Shown here in pieces: positions 1,162 to 64,000 of a DNA stretch of 64,000 bases. The notes under the pieces are model-generated. The model saw only the letters and a program-made list of their open reading frames with translations, did no database searches and was not told where the DNA came from. The position numbers and the translations under genes were made by a program. Source of the DNA: Carposina sasakii (lineage: Eukaryota; Arthropoda; Insecta; Lepidoptera; Carposinidae); NCBI GenBank assembly GCA_014607495.2, contig CP053175.1:6076001-6140000 (forward strand). Direction: 5' to 3'. Within the stretch, counting starts at the first letter, position 1. Each line of letters opens with the position of its first letter.

Positions 1162-36407
<35,246 letters not shown>

Positions 36408-36929
36408 CTGCCCGCTCCGCCGCCCGCGCGCCGCCGCCGCCGCCGCCGCGCGCCCTCGCCCGCCTCCCGCGCCTCCCGCTCGCCCTCCTCCCGCTCGCCT
36501 TCCCCGCCCCGGGCCAGTCTGCCGCCGCCCCCGCCGCCGCCCAGGTCCGATAGCTTGCGTCTCTCCGCAGAAGACATGGTGGTAATCGCCAATGCAGGTA
36601 TGAGGACGTCATCCGGTGCACTAGCCCACTTCCTCGCAGCCTACAGCCCGGCGGAGTTGTCTCTAGCGCGCAGCGACTACCTGCGTCCGCCGCTGTCGCC
36701 GCAGCGTCCGGCGGTGTCGCCGCGATCCGCCTTGTCGCTGCGCGCGGAGAGTGCGGACGCGGACGCGGCGGTGACGCGACTGACACCGCGGGTGACGCCG
36801 CGGGTGACGCACCAGTCGCAGTCGTGCAGTGTGCACGCGTTGCGGAGACAACCGCGGGTCGCGTCGCCGCCCGCGTGCGACTGCCTGCCGACCGATCCGA
36901 TACCGCCGCCCGAGCTGTTCGATTTTTAA
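36408..36929 (+). CDS. open in-frame extension after the par-1 stop (readthrough tail or alternative terminal exon)
   Basis: The frame of exon 20 stays open for 173 codons to TAA at 36927-36929. It begins with an Arg run and Ser/Pro-rich text, passes LSAEDMVVIANAGMRTSSGA and LAHFLAAYSPAELSLARSDY, and ends with PPELFDF. Third positions are overwhelmingly G or C, like the par-1 exons, and the sequence becomes AT-rich within a few bases of the TAA. No known domain is recognised. An acceptor-like site ctctccgcag (36561-36570) would let exon 19 (phase 1) splice to 36571 in the same frame, replacing the last KA1 helix by 119 residues. GC-rich DNA lowers the stop frequency in all frames, so the open frame alone is not proof. 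Confidence 0.5.
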   Translation: MPAPPPARRRRRRRAPSPASRASRSPSSRSPSPPRASLPPPPPPPRSDSLRLSAEDMVVIANAGMRTSSGALAHFLAAYSPAELSLARSDYLRPPLSPQRPAVSPRSALSLRAESADADAAVTRLTPRVTPRVTHQSQSCSVHALRRQPRVASPPACDCLPTDPIPPPELFDF

Positions 36930-37187
36930 TGTTGTGGCGAAGTTTGTCAATTTTGACATTTTCATGATTTTCTGTTGTAATGGTCTTTAGTAAAATTGCG
37001 GTTCTTTTCTCTCGGGTGTAGCAACCGGGCGGTTTTTTAAATCTAAGCAGATTAAATGTTTCGCCATAAAAACATGTAAATTTTACTAGCGTATTTAATT
37101 GATTTGTACAATATTCAATGAAATTTGGTTTTTAATTGTTAACGTTTTAGCTCGTCACTGTAACAACAGAACTATTGGAAATGTATA

Positions 37188-37193
37188 AATAAA
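37188..37193 (+). promoter_or_regulatory. candidate poly(A) signal AATAAA (proximal)
   Basis: First canonical signal after the par-1 coding region, in AT-rich sequence. Confidence 0.5.
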
Positions 37194-40161: not shown

Positions 40162-43100
40162 TTATTGTCCGCTTTTATTTACAGGGATACCGTCTAAGTC
40201 TATTTCGGTACTTGGTATCAGAGGCGGTTTAAATCCATACTCGATTCTTAAGTTTTTAGGAGTTCTATCGTTTCTCTTATATTCATGGCCTGCACCGTAA
40301 TTATTGTTGTCCTGCCATGAACTATAGCTATTTTCGACTGGCGTAGGACCGTAATATTCACTGCTTTCATTCGAATTATTGTCATCGGGTTCAGAATTTG
40401 TTACATAGTTCAAATAGTTATTCAGAGCAGGAGTTTTTTTGAATTCCTTTTTGGTTCCGTTTATATGTTGGTAGCTGGACGCATACAGATTGCCCCAGTG
40501 AGTTGTTTGAACGTACTGTTCCCTCTCTTTTTGTTTATCGTTCAAATATTGGTAGTAATTTGCTGCGTATTGCTTCTGGTCTCGGATTTTTTTCTGTTGT
40601 TCTGTTAGTGGATGTGGTGGTGATATATTACCTCGGTTATGTACAGGTGCATGTCTTATGTACTGCTGTAAATTTTGTGACGGAGATGCAGCTTGACCGT
40701 AACCGTATTGATAAACAGCGTAGGGTTTTTCTACAATCTTCTCGATACGATATGGCACGTTTATGGGAACATGTACGGGTTTTTCGACGATTTTTTCGAC
40801 CGCATACGGCACTTTTACTTCAACGGGCACCTGTACTGGGTACGGCACTTTCTTTTCAACAATCTTCTCGACGGGATAAGGCACTCTCTTTTCCACAGGG
40901 TACGGTTTGTCTACGTATTTGGTGACAACGTATGGTTTCTCTACAATTTTCTCGACAATAGTCTCAACAGGATACGGGACTTTAACGGGTACTTTCTTCT
41001 CGACGATTCTGTCTACATGCACAGGATATGGAACCTTTTTCTCTACTATCCTGTCAACAGGGTACGGTTGGGGTACAGGTACGTGAATATGATGAGGCAC
41101 AGGTACCTCAACTTTGTAAGGCCTGTCCACATATTTAGTAACAGTTACGGGCTTTTCTACAATGCGCTCTACAGGATATGGTACCCTTTTCTCTACTGGG
41201 ACAGGTATGGGTACTTTTGTTTCGTAATGCACAGGGTACGGTACTTTAGTTTCAACAGGGTATGGTACGGGCACCTGTTTTTGTACCACTGTTTCGACAG
41301 GTACAGGTCTATCTACATGTACCGGTACCGGTACAGGGGTTTCAATAGGTATGGGGTATAGTACCTTTTGCTCTACCGGAAAAGGAACTTCCACGGGATA
41401 TGCGACTGGGGTAGGCACAGGTATTTGTTGGTATATTTGCTTTTCGACTACCTTTTCAACTGGGTAAGGTACGTGAAATGGTCTATCAATGTATACCTTC
41501 TTTTCCACTGGATAAGGCACTTGCACCTCATAAGGTACCTGGTGGTGGATTTCAACAGGGTATGGTTGGTTTACATATTTTGTCACTTCCACTGGTTTTT
41601 CTACAATCCTGTCATAAGGCACTGGGACGGGTACAGGTCTATCTACTGGTACATTTTTGACCACTTCTACCGGTTCTGGGTAAGGTCTATCTATGTAACG
41701 ATCAACATATTTAGTAATAGGCACTTCTTTCTCAATTATAATTGGCTGAATAATATTCTGGCCATTTACATCGTAATTTTGGTACAATTGATACTCATTT
41801 CTTTGACTGTAAGGCTCATTGTTTAATACATGCACAGAAGATTGAATATTTTCGCTGGGTTCTAACTTCTCATTAGATTCTGCACCTTTACTTTCCCCAC
41901 TATCATTGTCTTCGTTTATTATATCATTGACGTTATTTTGCCTTGTTTTTGATTTCATTGCTTGTAAGTATTTGCTATACAGATTTCTAGCCATACCTAA
42001 GGCATCATTATTGTTGTTATTGTTATTATTGCTTCTGCCTTCTTCCAAATACTCGTGTACTTCTACGTCATTTATATGTGTTATTTCCAAAGGAATTGAT
42101 TTTTGGACTTCTACAGTCGTTTTTTCCCTTTTCGGACTTTGTACTCTTTCTAGTATCAATTCACTGTCAGAGGTTTCATGATCTTCGACAGAATTTAACG
42201 TTTCACTATCATTGGCATTGAGCAGACGTAAAGCCACAGTTATAGGTGCTAAATACTTATGGCTGATTGGTCGAGGTGTAACATTGATGTTTTCACCAGA
42301 ACTTTGATAATCATTCTCTTTCCCGTCTGCATTATCGTCCAAACTATTTCTGACTCCAACAATTTCGTATCCATCTTCTATATAGGGAACCATAGTTGAA
42401 ACCAAATTATTTACAATCTGCTGTTTGTAATCATTGTTTAAATCCTGCACTACAATTGGCGAACTAAATTTATATTCATTAGCACTTGTTTGTAGTACTT
42501 GTTCGTTCTGATTATTATGCTCAACATGCTCAACTTCACTGTCTACTAGTTTACCAATTTTGGCTTTTACAGTGATTCTGCTTCTAGGCTTACTGTCTTC
42601 ACCTATATATTTAAAGCTGGTATGTCCATGTTTAAAGTTATATCTTGGTTGCGGTTTTATAAAATCGTCACTTTGTGGTGGAGCATGCTTTTCAGCTGCA
42701 TGATTAATACGCAATAAGTCCTCATTCGTTATTAAATCTTGAGTGGAGGCAACCAATCTTGATATACCATCATCTTCTACGTATCTTATAGAGTTAGCGG
42801 TACTAGTTGGTGTTGAATCAGTTGTGTAGTAATATCTTTCGCTTCTAGCGTTCTCCCTTTGTGGTTCTACCTTAAAATTAACAGCTCCTCTGTAACTAAG
42901 CGGTCGGTGTGTCACGTGTTTTTCTCCAAAATTTCCATTAACATTATGCGACTCGTAGTTTGGTACATTCGCATACACATTGTTAGATTTCTGAAGATTA
43001 TCAAACTGCTGTTTAGGAGATTCGTCATTAGAACAATTGTGGTTCTTGAATACAATCACTGGAGTATCCAAGACAGTTTCGCTTCGTTCGTAAATATCCT

Positions 43101-43449
43101 CTTTTCTTGCATTAAGAGGTTTCGAGCTGAAATCTTGGATCGATTTTGGTTCGTTTGCCTTAAAACTATTTTGATATGTATATTGGACAGGGTGTTGTGT
43201 TTGCAAGTTAAATTGAACTGTGGGGGTAGAAAAAGTGTCGTGTTCGTAGAAACTTGGTGCGGAGTTATATTGGAAGGCGTTGTTAAGTGTGCTTGGAAGG
43301 ATTTGCAGCAGAGGCTCCTGGTTTAAATTCTGAGGGTATTGCTGCTGTAAGAGATAGATGTCCAGTGGTGGTGGCGGCTGAGGAGTCCCCACCAGGGTCT
43401 GTGGTTGGGAAACTGGCGTGGTGTTCGCTGGCGCGTTTCGGTTGTTTGC
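40162..43449 (-). CDS. cuticle-like gene, last exon (repeat exon)
   Basis: 1095 codons plus TAA. Begins ANNRNAPANTTPVSQP after acceptor cattttcag. The repeat section lies at about 40710-41730. The antisense frames here are long too, because the repeats lack stop-generating codons. Ends GIPVNKSGQ. Confidence 0.93.
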   Translation of the reverse strand, partial: ANNRNAPANTTPVSQPQTLVGTPQPPPPLDIYLLQQQYPQNLNQEPLLQILPSTLNNAFQYNSAPSFYEHDTFSTPTVQFNLQTQHPVQYTYQNSFKANEPKSIQDFSSKPLNARKEDIYERSETVLDTPVIVFKNHNCSNDESPKQQFDNLQKSNNVYANVPNYESHNVNGNFGEKHVTHRPLSYRGAVNFKVEPQRENARSERYYYTTDSTPTSTANSIRYVEDDGISRLVASTQDLITNEDLLRINHAAEKHAPPQSDDFIKPQPRYNFKHGHTSFKYIGEDSKPRSRITVKAKIGKLVDSEVEHVEHNNQNEQVLQTSANEYKFSSPIVVQDLNNDYKQQIVNNLVSTMVPYIEDGYEIVGVRNSLDDNADGKENDYQSSGENINVTPRPISHKYLAPITVALRLLNANDSETLNSVEDHETSDSELILERVQSPKREKTTVEVQKSIPLEITHINDVEVHEYLEEGRSNNNNNNNNDALGMARNLYSKYLQAMKSKTRQNNVNDIINEDNDSGESKGAESNEKLEPSENIQSSVHVLNNEPYSQRNEYQLYQNYDVNGQNIIQPIIIEKEVPITKYVDRYIDRPYPEPVEVVKNVPVDRPVPVPVPYDRIVEKPVEVTKYVNQPYPVEIHHQVPYEVQVPYPVEKKVYIDRPFHVPYPVEKVVEKQIYQQIPVPTPVAYPVEVPFPVEQKVLYPIPIETPVPVPVHVDRPVPVETVVQKQVPVPYPVETKVPYPVHYETKVPIPVPVEKRVPYPVERIVEKPVTVTKYVDRPYKVEVPVPHHIHVPVPQPYPVDRIVEKKVPYPVHVDRIVEKKVPVKVPYPVETIVEKIVEKPYVVTKYVDKPYPVEKRVPYPVEKIVEKKVPYPVQVPVEVKVPYAVEKIVEKPVHVPINVPYRIEKIVEKPYAVYQYGYGQAASPSQNLQQYIRHAPVHNRGNISPPHPLTEQQKKIRDQKQYAANYYQYLNDKQKEREQYVQTTHWGNLYASSYQHINGTKKEFKKTPALNNYLNYVTNSEPDDNNSNESSEYYGPTPVENSYSSWQDNNNYGAGHEYKRNDRTPKNLRIEYGFKPPLIPSTEIDLDGIPVNKSGQ

Positions 43450-46400
43450 CTGAAAATGAATATTTTTGGTTACATATAATTATGAAGTTAATGAAAAAGA
43501 TTGAACTAACTATAAACTTCATCTTTATTAAGTTCAAAGGGATCACTTTTCTTTGCAGCGTACGTACTTACAACTAATTGCAATATGTAGTATAGACTTA
43601 AATATGAAAACAATTACATACATATACCTAGCCACGGCTGAGTTCCCGAAATAAGGTAGCCAGAACTGCAGGACCATAAAGGATATCCCCCAGCCACGTT
43701 TAACATAGCTGGGACAGATGTTAATGATCAGCGACAGGTATCTAGCTTATCGCCTGAGAGAATTCCCGAGTTTCGTAGTCTTACGACATGTGCGGAAGAT
43801 GCAGGTGATGTGTTCTAGTGAAGTCTGCATCAGCACAAGACAAATCAATTATTGTGAATTTGATAAGTAATCCACTAATTTCTAGTAGTAGATACAACCG
43901 TTATTAATGGACATTGTTTTTTGCATAAATTAAATTAAGCAAATTACAGGTCAAAGAAGGCATTTTAATTCAGCATGTATTGTTAATATATGAATTAAAA
44001 TCAGCTTGGTAACGCAAAATACAGATGTCGGTATTGCTAATTAGGGAGCCGCGTTTAATTAATTATTTCGTAATCGAATGTATTTTCCGTAATTGCATGA
44101 TTGCTAAACCGCAACGGGATCGGACAATAGATAGTAATTAATACGTGAAAAGATTATTAATTCATCTAGAAAGATACAATACTTTAGTGAAATTTTACAA
44201 TTGGTAATGCTCATCCTACACCGATCGTTTATGTTAAATCTGTTCCCGCAATGCTAAACGTGGCTGTGGGATCTCCTATATGATCCTGTAGTTTTGACTA
44301 CCCATTTCGCGAACACAGCCGTGTGTATCATCAGCCTATTGCAGTCCGCTGCTGGACGTAGGCCTCCCCCAGAGCACGCCACAAGACTGCCATGGGGGGT
44401 ATTTGCCCATAGTCACCACGCTGGGCAGGCGGGTTGCTGACCGCAGTTTGTATTTTGGACTATGTTGTCAACACGGGAGGCGCTGCTGCCCACCTCCCGG
44501 AAACCCTTAATCGCCTCGTACGATACCCACGGGCAGACATGGGGTCGTACGAATTCTACTCTGCCGGCATCACACGGCTAACCGCGAATAAATGAGAACA
44601 GTGCAGGAAGATGATAATGATAGTTGAGAGTAAGGAGGACATAGGTTACATTTTAGCAGTAGCAGGCAAGAGCTAGTGGTTTGAAAATGAAATTGTATTA
44701 GGCGTTACAATTCGGAAGTTCAAACATTCACTATGGGTTCGCCCAGCATTCTGTTTACCTAATGTTTTAGGTTTTAGAGTTTTATAATTAGGTATTTACT
44801 AATTTCTATAATCATGAGGATGCCACGGGTGTTGGTGAAACATATGTAGATTATTAATCTAGTTTTTGATTTCGGAATAGTATTATCTTGCATGCTAGGT
44901 GCTCGGATCTGGTTTCTTGTAGCGATTGTAGGTAGTGCAAGTGCTTGTTTTCGCGATTATGAGTTATCAGATCCGAGGGTCAGTGGAGGGTGTAGGGCTC
45001 GGTGGTGGGCGCACCCATAGTGAAGCTAGTGGTTTAAAAACGCAGCTATATCAACTTGCCTGCTTTTGCAGCTGCAGCGCCCGATCCCCTATAGCGATGT
45101 TGGTGGAACTGGAGCGGTTTCCATCGTGAGAGCTCAGCGCCACCGCGCCGTGGTACCCTGAGGAGTCGGCAGCATACTGCACGCTTTGTTCTGCCTGTGG
45201 GCAATACATAACATATATTATTTCTTGTATTTGTGCCCAAAAGTCGGCAGTAGGCTCCCCCTGCATATAGAATGCATATAGAAAATACATACTTGTAGAT
45301 GCAAAATCAGCGACGCTACACGAGGGCAGAACACCAGTTAAGTAGATATTAAATTCAAATATTCACCTATACTGCAATTATTTAAAAACGCGGGTAGGTA
45401 GGAAAAATTACGACATTCAGCTGTCAAAGAGGTAGAATCTACGCATTTCGTCGAAGGGTTTACCCCGGGTCGGTCGACATATTGTTAGTTCCATATCTAA
45501 AATTTGTCTAAAATACGACGCGAATGTAATAATTATAGAAAAACATGTTAGGTCTAGCAGAAGAGGATACACATGCGTGAAAAATTCACCAGCAGACTGC
45601 CAGGCGCCTGCGCCGGCGAAAAATACCACAGTCCGCTCTAAAGGTAGTTGTTTCTTTTTCTGTCAAAGTTTGTTTTTGTTTAAGTGTATGTGCCTATGAG
45701 CATTTTTGTTCATTCCTATTTAAGGCCCCTTCGCTTTTTGGACATAGGAAGGAAGGTATACATTTTGTTTTAGTTTTTCTTATACGGCAGTGCAATAGGA
45801 TTGTATCTCCGTGACACATCGATAAATGATCAGTTATTCAACGAGTAATTTTGATATACGAGTAGAATATTCCCGATTAACACTGTATTTGTAATGATTT
45901 TGATTACTTATTTCTGTTATACAGGGTGTAACAGAAAGGGTATGTTAAGCGAAAAGCTATGTAAATAGCCCACTATAGAGATCCTATTTCCAATATTTAA
46001 GACTCGAAATCATATTTTTATTTTTCAAGATTGTATGAAGAATTCCGAAACAACCCAGGAATGTCCATATAATCTTGAGAAATAAAAATATGATTTCGAG
46101 TCTCAAATTTTGGAAATAGGATCTCTATAGTGGGCTATTTACATAGCTTTTCGCTTAACATACCCTTTCTGTTACACCCTGTATATTTTGATACATAATA
46201 TAGCTAAAATCATGACCTTACCTGTGGTAATTTAAGGTAGTAGTGTCCCACCGTGCCTGCACCCTGCTCAGGTGGCGCTAGCTGCCAGCCCCACTCGAAA
46301 CTTGCACCACCATTTTGAAATTTCTGAAAGAATAATAACACTTTTGATCAACAAGATGTTAGACAGTACGAATTACTCGAGATATTATTCAAAACTCGAT

Positions 46401-56285: not shown

Positions 56286-57695
56286 TCACTTCAGATTAAT
56301 TTTTTGGGAAGATAAGAGGAGCTTCTTAAGATTACTTTTAAATGTATTTACTGTTTTTAAGGCACGGATTGGAGGGGGTAGGTCATTCCAACATTTAAAG
56401 GCAGCAAACCTAAAGGAACCCCTGAAGGCCACCGACTTGTGTCGAGGCGTAGTAAACACATGAGTGCAATTTCTTCTATCATAGCGAAAATAGTGGTCTT
56501 TCGCCCACCTGAGTTTGGTAAGGAGATACTCAGGTATCTTTCTGTCCAGGATTCCAAACAGAAGAGTGGCAAGGTGAAGTTTCCTGCGAGCCTTCATCTT
56601 AAGCAAGCTAGAATTGTCCAAATATGGGGTCACATGGGTCCGAGGAGGGATGTGAAAGCAGAAACGTGCACAAGCGTTTTGCACCCTCTGTACCAACTTC
56701 TCGGTTCTAGCCAATAAGCAAGGCCCATAGACGACATCACAATAATTCAGCTTGGATAAAACAAGAGACTCACACAGAGCAATACGGACTTCCTCACTTA
56801 TGTATGGTCGGATTTTGTAGAGGGTTTTCAACCTATAAAAACAGTTTCTTACACACTCAGCAACGTGGCCCTCAAAGCGAAGTGTACTGTCTAGGATTAA
56901 TCCCAGACTTCTGGCCTCAACTACTCTTTCAACATTGACTCCTCCTATCTCGATATTAATTGAGGTGTTTGAGAGCCCGGCCAGCCCTACTCTTGTTCCT
57001 GTCAATAGAAATTTTGACTTGGTGGGGTTGAGTACCAAGCTATTTGATTCTGACCATTGAAGTATCCGTCTCAAGTCACTATTCACCTTCATTACAGAGT
57101 CTGAAATATCGTGGAGATGGAATGAATGATACAATTGCACATCATCAGCATACAAATGGAACATGCAGTGTGATATGGCACTGGTGATGTCTGCAGTGTA
57201 CAGGATAAACAAGATAGGTCCAAGTATAGATCCCTGGGGGACCCCACGAGGGACCGGTTGGAGTGTAGATCTAAGTGTGCGACCATCAGGTAACCCAAGC
57301 TCCACACACTGCATCCTATGATGCAGATAGCTAGCAAACCACCTCACCGAGTTAGAGTCGAAGCCATAATATGACAGCTTAGAGAGGAGGAGGGGGATGC
57401 TTATGGAATCAAAAGCTCTAGAAAAATCTAAAAGGACCAGGATACTAGACATTCCCTGATCCTGTGCGGCAAGAAGGTTGTCCACCACATCAAGAAGAGC
57501 CGTAGCAGTACTGCGTCCTCCACGGAAACCTGACTGAAGCTTAGGTAGTATGTGATGATCTTCCAGATACTTGACAAGCTGCATGCTCACAATCTTTTCT
57601 AGTAGTTTAGATAAGCATGGGAGCAAGCTGATTGGTCTGAGATCACCAAGTCCAGTAGGTTGAGTCTTCTTAGGTATAGGCTTAACAACTGCCAA
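56286..57695 (-). CDS. reverse transcriptase of LINE A, C-terminal part
   Basis: About 469 residues without internal stops. Visible RT motifs in order: VKPIPKK and LRPISLLPCLSKLLEK (motif 1-2), QSGFRGGRST, LVLLDFSRAFDS (motif A), VPQGSILGPILFILY (motif B), YADDVQL (motif C, about residue 190), then the thumb with LGLILDSTLRF, and a C-terminal tail with FKCWNDLPPPIR as in CR1/Jockey-type LINEs. It lacks endonuclease and ORF1. The TTG/ATG choice is arbitrary, since the frame is truncated. An intact frame suggests a young copy; family assignment needs a search. Confidence 0.9.
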   Translation of the reverse strand: MAVVKPIPKKTQPTGLGDLRPISLLPCLSKLLEKIVSMQLVKYLEDHHILPKLQSGFRGGRSTATALLDVVDNLLAAQDQGMSSILVLLDFSRAFDSISIPLLLSKLSYYGFDSNSVRWFASYLHHRMQCVELGLPDGRTLRSTLQPVPRGVPQGSILGPILFILYTADITSAISHCMFHLYADDVQLYHSFHLHDISDSVMKVNSDLRRILQWSESNSLVLNPTKSKFLLTGTRVGLAGLSNTSINIEIGGVNVERVVEARSLGLILDSTLRFEGHVAECVRNCFYRLKTLYKIRPYISEEVRIALCESLVLSKLNYCDVVYGPCLLARTEKLVQRVQNACARFCFHIPPRTHVTPYLDNSSLLKMKARRKLHLATLLFGILDRKIPEYLLTKLRWAKDHYFRYDRRNCTHVFTTPRHKSVAFRGSFRFAAFKCWNDLPPPIRALKTVNTFKSNLKKLLLSSQKINLK

Positions 57696-57720
57696 TCTCC
57701 AAACATATGGAACAAACGGA

Positions 57721-58149
57721 GCGTTTCAAAAACATTTTGCCGGCTCGTATTTTTGAATCGCTGTAAATCCGAAACGGTTAAACTTAGATTCGTCTGTCTA
57801 ATTTTTTATCAAAATGCGTAACTCCAAAAAAAAAAACGAAATTTTACTTTTAGTGCCATCTGGCGTAGAATCATGTTACCTTCCTGTTAGTATAATGCAA
57901 TTTCGATATTTTTTTGGAGTTACGCATTTTGATAATTAGACCGACTATATGCCATTCCAAAGGCAAACTTTATTATTTTTTTACGTAGAATCTAAAAAAG
58001 AAATAACAAAAATTCATGAATAGGTATTGCTACATAAAACACGGTTGTGTTACCACAATGGGATTGCTAAAACTGCAGGATCACTAAGGAATCCTACAGG
58101 CACGTTTAGCATGGCGCGGGTCAGGATGTAAAAATAACTAATCAATCAC
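57721..58149. other. inverted-repeat segment and dispersed fragment
   Basis: tcaaaatgcgtaactccaaa (about 57809) and ttggagttacgcattttga (about 57913) are inverted. A reverse fragment of the cacgtttagc family is at 58060-58120. Confidence 0.55.
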
Positions 58150-59608: not shown

Positions 59609-60405
59609 TAATATTATAAAGCTGAAGAGTTTGTTTGTTTGTTTGTTTGATTGAACGCGCTAATCTCCGGAACTACTGGGTCGAATTAAAAAATTCTTTT
59701 TGTGTTGGATAGTCCATTTATCGAGGAAGGCTTTAGGCTATATATCATCACAGTGCGACCAATAGGGACGAAGAATAAGAGGAAAATGTGGAAAAAACGG
59801 GGAAAATTATTCAACTTTGGAGACTTCCGTTGCGTGCGCTGCGTAAACGGTTCAAGTTATCCAAAAAATATGTATGAAAGAATAAAATGACGTAGAAATG
59901 ATAAGAAAGAAAAAAATTGAAGGTCTAGACTGCCTGATGCAGAACCCTTAGCAGCCCAGCTAAACTTTGAGAGATATGAAAATACCGTCTTAGGAAAAGT
60001 TGCTCAGCATGATAAGCACTTTCTAATAACGTAATAAAATTGAAGGTCTAGATAACCTGATGCAGAACCCTTAACAGCCCAGCTAAATTTTGAGAGATAT
60101 GAAAATACCGTCTTAGGAAAAGTTATTCAACATTTTAAAAGAATTCAATTCCCTGTTAAGTTATCTTTTGCTGTAACAATTAATAAATCACAGGGGCAAA
60201 CGTTTAAACACGTTGGAATTGACTTACGTCAAGACTGCTTTTCACACGGCCAATTATATGTCGCGTTGTCAAGATCGGGTTGCGGAGAAAATCAGTATGT
60301 TCTTCTGCCACAAGAAAATAAAACAAAAAATATAATTTACGCAGAAGTACTTTAAAATATTTTATTCTGTTTGTTGACGCGGACGAAGTCGCGGGCAACA
60401 GCTAT
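59609..60405 (+). mobile_element. Helitron copy carrying the helicase C-terminus
   Basis: Begins taatattataaagctgaag, contains the shared 5' block and, before its 3' hairpin, the last codons of a RepHel helicase at 60130-60354. Ends gcgggcaacagcta. Internally deleted: no Rep nuclease. Confidence 0.75.
60130..60354 (+). pseudogene. Helitron RepHel, PIF1-like helicase C-terminal remnant
   Basis: Plus-strand frame: [20 protein letters not shown], then [24 protein letters not shown] and [22 protein letters not shown]. The TINKSQGQT and QLYVALSR motifs are helicase motifs V-VI of the PIF1/Helitron family. Only about 75 residues remain of a protein usually well over 1000. Confidence 0.88.
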
Positions 60406-62105: not shown

Positions 62106-64000
62106 CAAACTGAAGAATAAAATAATATGTATATATAAGAATAAAATAATAAGAATAAAATAAAAGGAAAAAAGCAGATTAGATTGCCTTGGATCAGTGA
62201 CAATGTAACTCGACTATGTGAAAAACGTGACAAACTATTTAGATCTTGGAAAAATAACCAAAATGACCATAAATTAAAACTAGAATACAATAAAACCCGA
62301 AATAAAGTACACAAAATTATAGAAAATAACAGAAACTTATATTATATTAACCATATAAACAATAATTTTAAAAACACAAAAAAAGTATATCAAATTGTCA
62401 ATCAAATGCTAGGCCGAATGACACCGTCCATTGATACTGCTATCCTCAAAGCTTTTGAGACTCAAGGACTGTCTTCCCAAACTATAGCCGATAACTTTGC
62501 AAGCCGATTCGACCAAGCAGTAAAAGATATCATTCCTAACTGTAATGTGAAGCTAATTGACCCCGGTAAATACTGTAACTCAGTTAACACTAGTATGCTC
62601 TTCCGTAAGGCGTCATGTAAATCCATAAATACAATAATAAAAAAAATGAACGCCAACAAAGCGCCAGGACCAGACAACATTAGAGTGTCTGTTGTAAAAA
62701 TGATAAGTGAGAAATTATCAATCTCTATTGCTAATTTAATTAATTGTAGTGTCAAACACGGCCTTTATCCAGACGACCTTAAGGTAGGCTGCGTCCGACC
62801 GGTGTATAAAAAAGGAAAACGTAGTGATTTCTCAAACTATCGTCCTATTACACTTCTTTCTACGATAGATAAGATAGTAGAAAAATATATATGTCAACAG
62901 ATACATGCCTTTTATAGGAAGCATGACGTTATATACCAAAATCAATTCGGATTCCAGACTGGAAAGGGTACGAACGATCTCCTGTCGCGATTCACCGAGG
63001 AAGTCAATAACCACCTTAATAATAAAAAATATGTACTCTCATTGTTTATAGATTTCTCACGCGCGTTTGACACTCTTGAACATAAACAATTAGTAAACAA
63101 ATTAGATGACTGCGGAGTTCGTGGCCCCCTCCTGAAATGGTGTGAAAACTACCTGTATAATCGTAAATTTACCGTAAAAGTTGACGACTCGTACAGCGAT
63201 CCCATACTGGTTACAGAGGGCACAGCCCAGGGATCCGTACTGGGCCCTCTGTATTTTTTAACTTATGTCAACGACATTAGTAAATGCATTAAAAACTGCT
63301 CGTGTTATCAGTTTGCTGATGACACATGTCTAGTAATAGCTGATAAAGACCCTAGAAAAGCCTGTAACCTGCTTCAGTCCGATCTAAACGCACTGATAAG
63401 ATGGTGCCATGATGCTGGCCTGGTATTAAATGCAAGCAAGACAAAAATACTTATTATTAAATCGCCTTATACAGGACATATTCCAATAAAAGACCTAGTG
63501 ATCCACAAACATAATTGCCTGCATTCCCTGTATAAAAAAATATGTAGCTGCCCTAAAATTGAAGTTGTCAACAGACAGACGTACCTCGGAGTATCGATAG
63601 ATAATAAATTTAATTGGTCTAGTCATATCGAATATGTATGTAATAAATTGAGACAGTTCTTAGCTAATATTATACTACTTAAAGATCGAATCCCATTCAA
63701 GGTTAAGTTAATGTTATACAATTCATTAGCTGAGTCATAGGTCCAGTATGGACTCAGCAGTTATGGTCGTACTTTTACCACGTATCTTAACCAAATATAT
63801 AGGCTTCAAATAAGAATCTTAAAAAATATAGTTTCTAAAAAGGTTAAAATAAGATATCAAGATGACGAAATTGGCCTCCTTAGATATTGTAAATCATTAC
63901 CTGTTCATATTCAATGCATATATATGCTTCTAAAAGATAACTTCTTTAATGAGTCCATTTTGAATGTAATAAATCATTCTGTGTATACCCGTGCAGTCGC
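62106..64000 (+). mobile_element. non-LTR retrotransposon (LINE C), 5'-truncated, runs off the window
   Basis: A reverse transcriptase frame is open from the AT-rich junction near 62106 and continues, apart from one TAG, to the last base. It differs in sequence from LINE A and LINE B. Confidence 0.85.
62184..63740 (+). CDS. reverse transcriptase of LINE C, interrupted by TAG
   Basis: 518 codons from the first usable TTG; the frame is open further upstream (KKQIRLPWISDNV), so this start is not real. RT motifs: NKAPGPDNI, VRPVYKKGKRSDFSNYRPIT, LFIDFSRAFDTLEH (motif A), GTAQGSVLGPLYFL (motif B), YQFADDTCLVIA (motif C, about 375-386), TYLGVSIDNKFNW. TAG at 63738-63740 breaks the frame, but the same frame stays open from 63741 to the window end with RT C-terminal text (VQYGLSSYGRTF). 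Probably a recently disabled copy. Confidence 0.88.
   Translation: MPWISDNVTRLCEKRDKLFRSWKNNQNDHKLKLEYNKTRNKVHKIIENNRNLYYINHINNNFKNTKKVYQIVNQMLGRMTPSIDTAILKAFETQGLSSQTIADNFASRFDQAVKDIIPNCNVKLIDPGKYCNSVNTSMLFRKASCKSINTIIKKMNANKAPGPDNIRVSVVKMISEKLSISIANLINCSVKHGLYPDDLKVGCVRPVYKKGKRSDFSNYRPITLLSTIDKIVEKYICQQIHAFYRKHDVIYQNQFGFQTGKGTNDLLSRFTEEVNNHLNNKKYVLSLFIDFSRAFDTLEHKQLVNKLDDCGVRGPLLKWCENYLYNRKFTVKVDDSYSDPILVTEGTAQGSVLGPLYFLTYVNDISKCIKNCSCYQFADDTCLVIADKDPRKACNLLQSDLNALIRWCHDAGLVLNASKTKILIIKSPYTGHIPIKDLVIHKHNCLHSLYKKICSCPKIEVVNRQTYLGVSIDNKFNWSSHIEYVCNKLRQFLANIILLKDRIPFKVKLMLYNSLAES

What the first reader, a model, noticed from the sequence alone, without database searches (positions are those of the whole stretch)
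36405..36929. 173-codon in-frame, coding-like extension behind the par-1 stop codon
Seen: after the TGA that ends KA1, the same frame is open to 36926. Third positions are almost all G/C, as in the par-1 exons, and composition drops to AT-rich right after the second stop. The UGA is followed by C. Seen also: an acceptor-like ctctccgcag at 36561-36570 whose use from exon 19 keeps this very frame. Known: UGA-C is a leaky context and C-terminal extension by readthrough is documented in many insect genes. Inference: either a readthrough isoform with a Ser/Pro/Arg-rich tail or an isoform in which the last KA1 helix is replaced. Caveat: GC-rich DNA opens other frames too, as seen on the minus strand here.
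Basis: partly seen in the sequence, partly recalled or inferred. Interest (0 to 1): 0.8.

Follow-up and report, generated by a model that had tools for sequence, protein, structure and literature searches.

The report
Conserved moth par-1 stop-codon readthrough tail
In moths and butterflies the stop codon of the cell-polarity kinase gene par-1 is followed by about 170 further codons whose protein sequence has been preserved by evolution, so some ribosomes very probably read through the stop and make a longer kinase, as reported for the fruit-fly gene.

Summary
In detail: KA1 of par-1/MARK ends at TGA 36405-36407 and the frame stays open for 173 codons to TAA 36927. Openness alone means little (343 of 5000 shuffles). 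Conservation decides. 29 database proteins carry this tail; the 17 with organism names are all moths or butterflies. Five gene models that apparently read TGA as Trp run unbroken from KA1 through the stop into the tail, and the stretch right behind the stop, with its arginine run, is conserved. Two wrong-frame models imply the same reading, with differences from the window mainly at third codon positions, 25 against 8. 30 of 30 sequences share PPP[EA]LF[DE]F at the second stop. Best reading: stop-codon readthrough, rather than the acceptor at 36570 or a separate gene. Dunn et al. 2013 list a 696-nt extension with a predicted nuclear signal for Drosophila par-1, so this is a well-conserved lepidopteran member of a known kind. 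Moth DNA, moth translation and homology to the fly tail were not examined.

The parts
   Evidence: phmmer to MARK1/MARK3 KA1 chains, E 1.8e-29 and 1.1e-28; Pfam KA1
36349..36404 (+). last ordinary par-1 coding stretch, end of KA1 (...KIANELKL)
   Evidence: last 18 residues identical in the five contiguous relatives
36405..36407 (+). first stop UGA, context UGA-CUG, proposed readthrough codon
   Evidence: W at this place in five gene models; P0022 implies TGA or CGA, P0019 TGA, TAA or a Leu/Ser codon; relatives' DNA not seen
36408..36575 (+). 5' part of extension: LP, arginine run, Ser/Pro/Arg-rich and poly-Pro stretches, RSDSLRLSAED (56 codons; 41-62 in relatives)
   Evidence: 61-75% identical to six relatives over aligned residues; 0 of 1000 shuffles reach the alignment score in each of the six (of 21) pairs tested
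36429..36449 (+). seven-arginine run, NLS-like or membrane-binding candidate (function inferred)
   Evidence: five or more consecutive Arg in 7 of 7 sequences that begin at or before the stop; P0008, starting inside this stretch, has four
36576..36926 (+). 3' part of extension, MVV...PIPPPELFDF (117 codons); modelled as separate proteins of about 80-120 aa in several moths
   Evidence: 65-75% identical to six relatives over aligned residues; found in 20 and 28 database proteins
36927..36929 (+). second stop TAA, end of the extension
   Evidence: PPP[EA]LF[DE]F at this place in 30 of 30; in the five models that read on, the following residues look unrelated by eye
36561..36570 (+). acceptor-like ctctccgcag, judged coding sequence rather than the main route to the tail
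   Evidence: 15 of 22 pyrimidines upstream, against 14 of 22 at the KA1 last-exon acceptor (that one taken one base off); it lies inside conserved codons
37188..37193 (+). first AATAAA after the extension, so the tail fits in the 3' region of the par-1 mRNA
   Evidence: consensus match only. An ATTAAA at 37051 is nearer; neither motif lies between 36301 and 36926

Best explanation
A fraction of ribosomes read the par-1 UGA (UGA-C context) as a sense codon and go on to the UAA at 36927. This gives Par-1 a second C terminus: a 173-residue, mostly disordered tail directly behind the last KA1 helix. The tail begins with LP and an arginine run, continues with Ser/Pro/Arg-rich and proline stretches, then the conserved blocks SDSLRLSAEDMV..ANGG.RTPSGALAHFLAAY, RSDYLRPP and PRSSLSLRADS, and ends in PIPPPELFDF-COOH. 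Shown here: protein-level conservation across and beyond the stop in Lepidoptera, with a common end at the second stop. Inferred: that readthrough happens in this animal and at what rate; that the codon in the relatives is TGA; that the arginine run acts as a nuclear localization signal or strengthens KA1's contact with membrane or kinase domain; that the free C terminus is a short-motif ligand (F-x-F-COOH resembles class II PDZ ligands; recalled, not tested).
For: 29 database proteins (clusters at 90% identity) share the tail; the 17 with organism names are all Lepidoptera. Five (P0001, P0002, P0012, P0023, P0024) run ...[11 protein letters not shown][GS]S.PRRRRR... unbroken into the tail. 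W very probably stands for TGA, because four of these five also carry W at the second stop. KA1 end 18 of 18 identical, 5' part 61-75%, 3' part 65-75% to the window. Two wrong-frame models, P0022 (Chrysodeixis) and P0019 (Choristoneura), imply frame-0 readings that fit the consensus at 14 of 14 places around the stop and 15-16 of 16 in the tail, where the best of 100 shuffles in those tests reached 12 to 14. Minimal inferred differences in three tail blocks: 25 at third positions against 8 at the other about equally determined position, binomial P 0.0023. Drosophila par-1 is listed with a 696-nt extension, PhyloCSF 654.90 and a predicted NLS. UGA and a following C are typical of readthrough genes in Anopheles and Drosophila (PMC5100048); disordered, low-complexity, motif-rich tails are typical in the fly (PMC4999894, passages).
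Against: No ribosome profiling, peptide or RNA data could be seen for any moth. The W models give no DNA, so TGA is inferred; TGG at the first stop is not strictly excluded. The fly extension's sequence was not obtained, and the search for long proteins with a similar tail returned no fly protein. No unusually stable RNA fold lies at the stop: z +0.93, +2.05 and +1.19, that is, less stable than shuffles. The predicted structure of the tail is of low confidence (mean pLDDT 59). The codon-position count rests on inferred DNA and blocks chosen by me; both species are compared with the same window, so counts are not fully independent; the two shift-2 blocks alone give 13 against 6, P 0.08.
Confidence: 0.85

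Rival explanations
1. Alternative splicing from exon 19 (35825) to the acceptor-like 36570/36571 replaces the last KA1 helix by the tail, without passing the UGA.
For: The acceptor has 15 of 22 pyrimidines upstream and keeps the frame.
Against: Codons 36408-36575, which this splice would skip, are conserved as protein (61-75%). SDSLRLSAED is conserved across the supposed junction. The search for proteins of about 495-1575 aa with this tail gave one hit of 1171 candidates, an off-frame model that enters the last exon upstream of the stop; clustering at 90% could hide isoforms.
Confidence: 0.05
2. A separate small gene or downstream cistron started at AUG 36576, as several moth annotations have it (uncharacterized proteins of about 117 aa).
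For: Stand-alone models in Pectinophora, Achroia, Plodia, Tuta, Phthorimaea, Anticarsia, Vanessa and others.
Against: 56 codons upstream of the first in-frame AUG are conserved in the same frame, and no in-frame ATG lies between the stop and 36576. P0024 has Ile in place of this Met. A gene finder that obeys stops has to start a new model here (inference).
Confidence: 0.04
3. The UGA is bypassed by another route: A-to-I editing to UGG, selenocysteine, or a short intron removing the stop.
For: Any of these would give the same conserved protein; editing would give Trp.
Against: Lepidoptera with complete genomes were reported to lack selenoproteins (PMC2500217, passages). A short intron is hard to square with conserved codons starting right after the stop (LPGSAPRRRRR). 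Editing was not testable.
Confidence: 0.04
4. A chance open frame in GC-rich DNA without function.
For: 343 of 5000 shuffles are open in frame 0; an antisense frame is open as well.
Against: 29 homologous proteins, common end at the second stop, third-position bias.
Confidence: 0.01

Closest known systems
Drosophila melanogaster par-1 readthrough extension (Dunn et al. 2013, PMC3840789, Table 2)
   Same: Same kinase family gene, an extension behind the annotated stop (696 nt there, 519 nt here), positive coding-conservation score, predicted nuclear localization signal; the moth tail has an arginine run.
   Different: Reported for the fly; homology of the two tails was not tested because the fly sequence was not obtained.
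Ancient readthrough genes shared by Anopheles and Drosophila (Jungreis et al. 2016, PMC5100048)
   Same: UGA followed by C, conserved stop, extension less constrained than the first frame.
   Different: Diptera only; a word search of its main text found no par-1, Lepidoptera, Bombyx, butterfly or moth. RNA structures are enriched there (9% of candidates); none found here.
MARK1-4 / PAR-1 kinases with KA1 C terminus
   Same: Kinase, UBA and KA1 exons match MARK chains.
   Different: Those chains were compared only up to KA1; readthrough tails of other MARK genes were not examined, apart from the unnamed sequences P0031-P0051.

Membership tests
Conserved stop-codon readthrough gene | Open second frame in phase with the first, ending at a second stop | tested here: met
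Conserved stop-codon readthrough gene | First stop conserved in orthologues | tested here: met
   W in 5 of 5 contiguous models; TGA/CGA implied in P0022 and TGA/TAA/Leu/Ser in P0019. Inferred from proteins; DNA not seen
Conserved stop-codon readthrough gene | Protein-coding conservation of the second frame (synonymous-biased change) | tested here: met
   amino-acid identity 61-75%; 25 against 8 differences at third positions, inferred DNA; no PhyloCSF run
Conserved stop-codon readthrough gene | Conservation stops at the second stop | tested here: met
   30 of 30 carry the same end motif; 25 end there, five read on into residues that look unrelated by eye
Conserved stop-codon readthrough gene | Leaky context (UGA, next base C) | tested here: met
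   UGA-CUG in the window; next residue Leu in the five contiguous models, so C or U in those
Conserved stop-codon readthrough gene | No alternative splicing or downstream start explains the tail | tested here: inconclusive
   conserved upstream codons argue against both; no RNA-seq available
Conserved stop-codon readthrough gene | Ribosomes or peptides found beyond the stop | not testable with these tools
   listed for fly par-1 in a ribosome-profiling study; no moth data
Stem-loop-assisted readthrough | Stable conserved RNA structure within 100 nt behind the stop | tested here: not met
   z-scores +0.93, +2.05, +1.19, none more stable than shuffles; window sequence only, conservation of structure not tested
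MARK/PAR-1 kinase | Kinase, UBA and KA1 in one gene | tested here: met
   exon order in the window, no transcript seen
Selenoprotein | Sec machinery in the lineage | not tested
   a paper reports loss in Lepidoptera (PMC2500217, passages)

The most novel reading that the evidence does not exclude
The par-1 stop codon has been a readthrough stop since before Lepidoptera and Diptera split, perhaps across arthropods, while the tail behind it was rebuilt in each lineage. Besides the lepidopteran-type tail, 21 unnamed KA1-ending models read W at the stop, 18 of 21 with Leu next (biased, since the query profile held W-L), and three groups of these share tails among themselves by eye (P0032/33/34/38, P0037/39/40, P0035/42/44/45), though members of a group may be close relatives. 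The conserved thing would be a translational switch that puts a lineage-specific, motif-bearing tail on the end of the KA1 domain.
Probability: 0.4. Interest if true: 0.7.

Novelty: new member of a known kind. Interest (0 to 1): 0.52.

Why it matters
Par-1 is a conserved regulator of cell polarity, and KA1 is auto-inhibitory in C. elegans PAR-1 as in human MARK1 (PMC6451319, abstract). A second C terminus fused to KA1 would be a way to change the kinase's place or activity without new transcripts (inference). The tail is strongly conserved in Lepidoptera, yet public annotations show it as separate uncharacterized proteins. A 2024 moth genome paper says its authors are not aware of the frequency of readthrough being documented in Lepidoptera (PMC10917498, passage). 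With fly par-1 already listed as readthrough, function can be tested in two insect orders.

Tried and rejected
Chance open frame: not excluded by shuffling, excluded by homologues. Splice to 36571 and stand-alone gene: see rivals. RNA stem-loop as stimulator: no excess stability. Folded domain in the tail: Pfam finds nothing in P0021 at E 1, and AlphaFold2 gives mean pLDDT 59 with the KA1 helix and three short helices; no fold search was made on so weak a model. PhyloCSF: not possible without moth DNA; replaced by DNA inferred from two wrong-frame gene models. In one search five of eight region-and-shift tests matched; the other three (best 11 of 14, 9 of 14, 12 of 16) did not, as expected if each region was read in one wrong frame. 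One search was a first, unselective version that listed weak diagonals too, its output cut; I replaced it by five blocks picked. Its two longest diagonals through the stop, misaligned stretches included, give third against other position 27 to 16 (P0022) and 35 to 22 (P0019). In one search the placement of one block (36551) is tied in distance with 36734 and was kept because it fits the consensus. The two KA1-end blocks (3 and 1 differences, all at third positions) and one difference at a degenerate position are left out of 25 against 8. One search took two splice acceptors at slightly wrong bases; only the 36571 value and, with that warning, the KA1 one are used. Searches used a wrong frame and are not used. 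Literature: asked for par-1 with readthrough and gave the Dunn paper and one other, on a different gene; some searches asked for readthrough in Lepidoptera, and none of the listed titles or abstract beginnings reports par-1; the papers listed do not hold the readthrough term. Most of these papers were seen as listings only, and the library lacks most subscription papers.

Full report
What is there. The window holds a par-1/MARK gene on the + strand. Kinase and UBA exons match MARK1-4 chains of the PDB (the domain name UBA is recalled) and the KA1 exon matches MARK1 and MARK3 KA1 (E 1.8e-29 and 1.1e-28). The last exon begins at 36349 and KA1 ends ...[10 protein letters not shown] at 36404; TGA is at 36405-36407, followed by CTG CCC. 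The frame stays open for 173 codons to TAA 36927-36929. AATAAA sites follow at 37188 and 37370, with an ATTAAA at 37051 and neither motif between 36301 and 36926, so the tail can lie in the same mRNA.

Is it more than chance? By itself hardly. In 5000 dinucleotide shuffles of the 519 bases, 343 were open in frame 0 and 963 in any of three frames; for the last 127 codons the numbers were 229 and 773. GC at codon positions is 0.70/0.69/0.82, synonymous GC3 0.819 against 0.792 for 413 codons of conserved par-1 exon stretches. Codon choice fits par-1 best in frame 0 among the + frames, but one antisense frame does as well.

Conservation. A search with the tail gave 20 proteins. A second, with a profile including the KA1 end, gave 49, of which 28 carry the tail and 21 only KA1. 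A third, restricted to proteins of about 495-1575 aa and scored on the tail, gave one of 1171 candidates. Together 29 distinct database proteins carry the tail; 17 bear organism names, all moths or butterflies (that these genera are Lepidoptera is recalled). The database is clustered at 90% identity, so these are not counts of species. The two small-protein searches scored only 7992 and 7974 candidates, those sharing most words, so absence elsewhere means little.

Across the stop. Five models (P0001, P0002, P0012, P0023, P0024) read ...[21 protein letters not shown]... and run on into the tail. Four of these, and also P0027, show a W at the second stop too, followed by 4 to 32 residues that look unrelated by eye. 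I conclude that these gene calls read TGA as Trp; the DNA itself could not be seen. P0011 (Epargyreus clarus) starts at the residue behind the stop. The last 18 residues before the stop are identical to the window in all five. Between the stop and the first in-frame Met, six relatives are 61-75% identical to the window over aligned residues, and 0 of 1000 shuffles reached the observed score in each of the six (of 21) pairs tested. In the rest they are 65-75% identical. An arginine run of five or more stands just behind the stop in 7 of 7 sequences that begin at or before it. All 30 sequences (29 plus the window) carry PPP[EA]LF[DE]F at the second stop.

Codon-position test without DNA. Two models, P0022 (Chrysodeixis includens) and P0019 (Choristoneura fumiferana), slipped into wrong frames of the last exon. 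Their residues restrict the underlying codons. The implied frame-0 reading fits KA1-stop-LP and the tail at 14 of 14 and 15-16 of 16 places, where the best of 100 shuffles in those tests gave 12 to 14; three of the eight tests did not match. Choosing the codons closest to the window, three tail blocks need 34 differences: 25 at third positions, 8 at the other well-determined position and 1 at a degenerate one. 25 against 8 has a one-sided binomial P of 0.0023; the two shift-2 blocks alone give 13 against 6, P 0.08. Both KA1-end blocks differ only at third positions. The blocks were chosen by me, one placement is a tie, and both species are compared with the same window, so this is a small substitute for PhyloCSF, not its equal.

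How it works. The simplest reading is readthrough of UGA-C. A splice to 36571 would skip conserved codons; a start at AUG 36576 would leave conserved codons untranslated, and P0024 lacks that Met. Selenocysteine is unlikely because Lepidoptera with complete genomes were reported to lack selenoproteins (PMC2500217, passages). RNA editing remains open. No stable stem-loop was found. The tail looks disordered and matches the published picture of fly extensions: disordered, rich in Pro, Arg and Ser and in short motifs (PMC4999894, passages), with variable low-complexity stretches between conserved ones (PMC4528330, passages). Function is inference. The arginine run could be a nuclear signal, as predicted for fly par-1, or could add to KA1's membrane binding (recalled), or affect KA1 auto-inhibition, which is reported for C. 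elegans PAR-1 and human MARK1 (PMC6451319, abstract). The near-invariant C terminus suggests a ligand that must be free.

Known and new. Dunn et al. 2013 (PMC3840789; section 16 and passages read) list par-1 among Drosophila C-terminal extensions, 2R:15370912-15371608, PhyloCSF 654.90, predicted NLS. Jungreis et al. 2016 (PMC5100048; passages and the first part of section 7) describe ancient readthrough shared by flies and mosquitoes, with UGA-C preferred; a word search of its main text found neither par-1 nor Lepidoptera. A 2024 moth paper says its authors are not aware of the frequency of readthrough being documented in Lepidoptera (PMC10917498, passages). So the gene is known as readthrough in the fly; I found no description of the lepidopteran tail in searches, most of whose papers I saw only as listings. 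Whether fly and moth tails are homologous is untested.

Wider hint. Of the 21 unnamed KA1-ending models listed up to E 1, all read W after ELKL and 18 of 21 have Leu next. The query profile contained W-L, so this is a biased sample. Three small groups share their own tails, and members of a group may be close relatives. It suggests, no more, that a readable UGA at this place is old in arthropods.

Noticed in passing
P0032, P0033, P0034, P0038: Unnamed KA1-ending models share a different tail behind the W: LPVLEG.CS...PSRGWR...PWR. A second conserved par-1 extension in another animal group is possible.
   Followed up: partly
P0035, P0042, P0044, P0045: Short tails of about 13-14 residues behind the W that end alike (...NP), from KA1 domains reading [19 protein letters not shown]; possibly a short readthrough extension.
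   Followed up: partly
P0003, P0005, P0006, P0007, P0017, P0026; P0019, P0022: Public moth annotations carry the par-1 tail as separate 'uncharacterized' proteins, once as 'formin-like protein 3'; P0019 and P0022 are off-frame models, probably caused by the stop.
   Followed up: yes
window 40162-43479, - strand: A 1105-aa open frame with many PVEK/PYPVE-type repeats, perhaps a single-exon structural or secreted protein (by eye).
   Followed up: no
window 56286-57725 (-) and 62145-63740 (+): Two long reverse-transcriptase-like open frames, probably non-LTR retrotransposons (by eye).
   Followed up: no
window 60056-60355, + strand: Helicase-like fragment (...[17 protein letters not shown]...), perhaps a Helitron remnant (by eye).
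   Followed up: no
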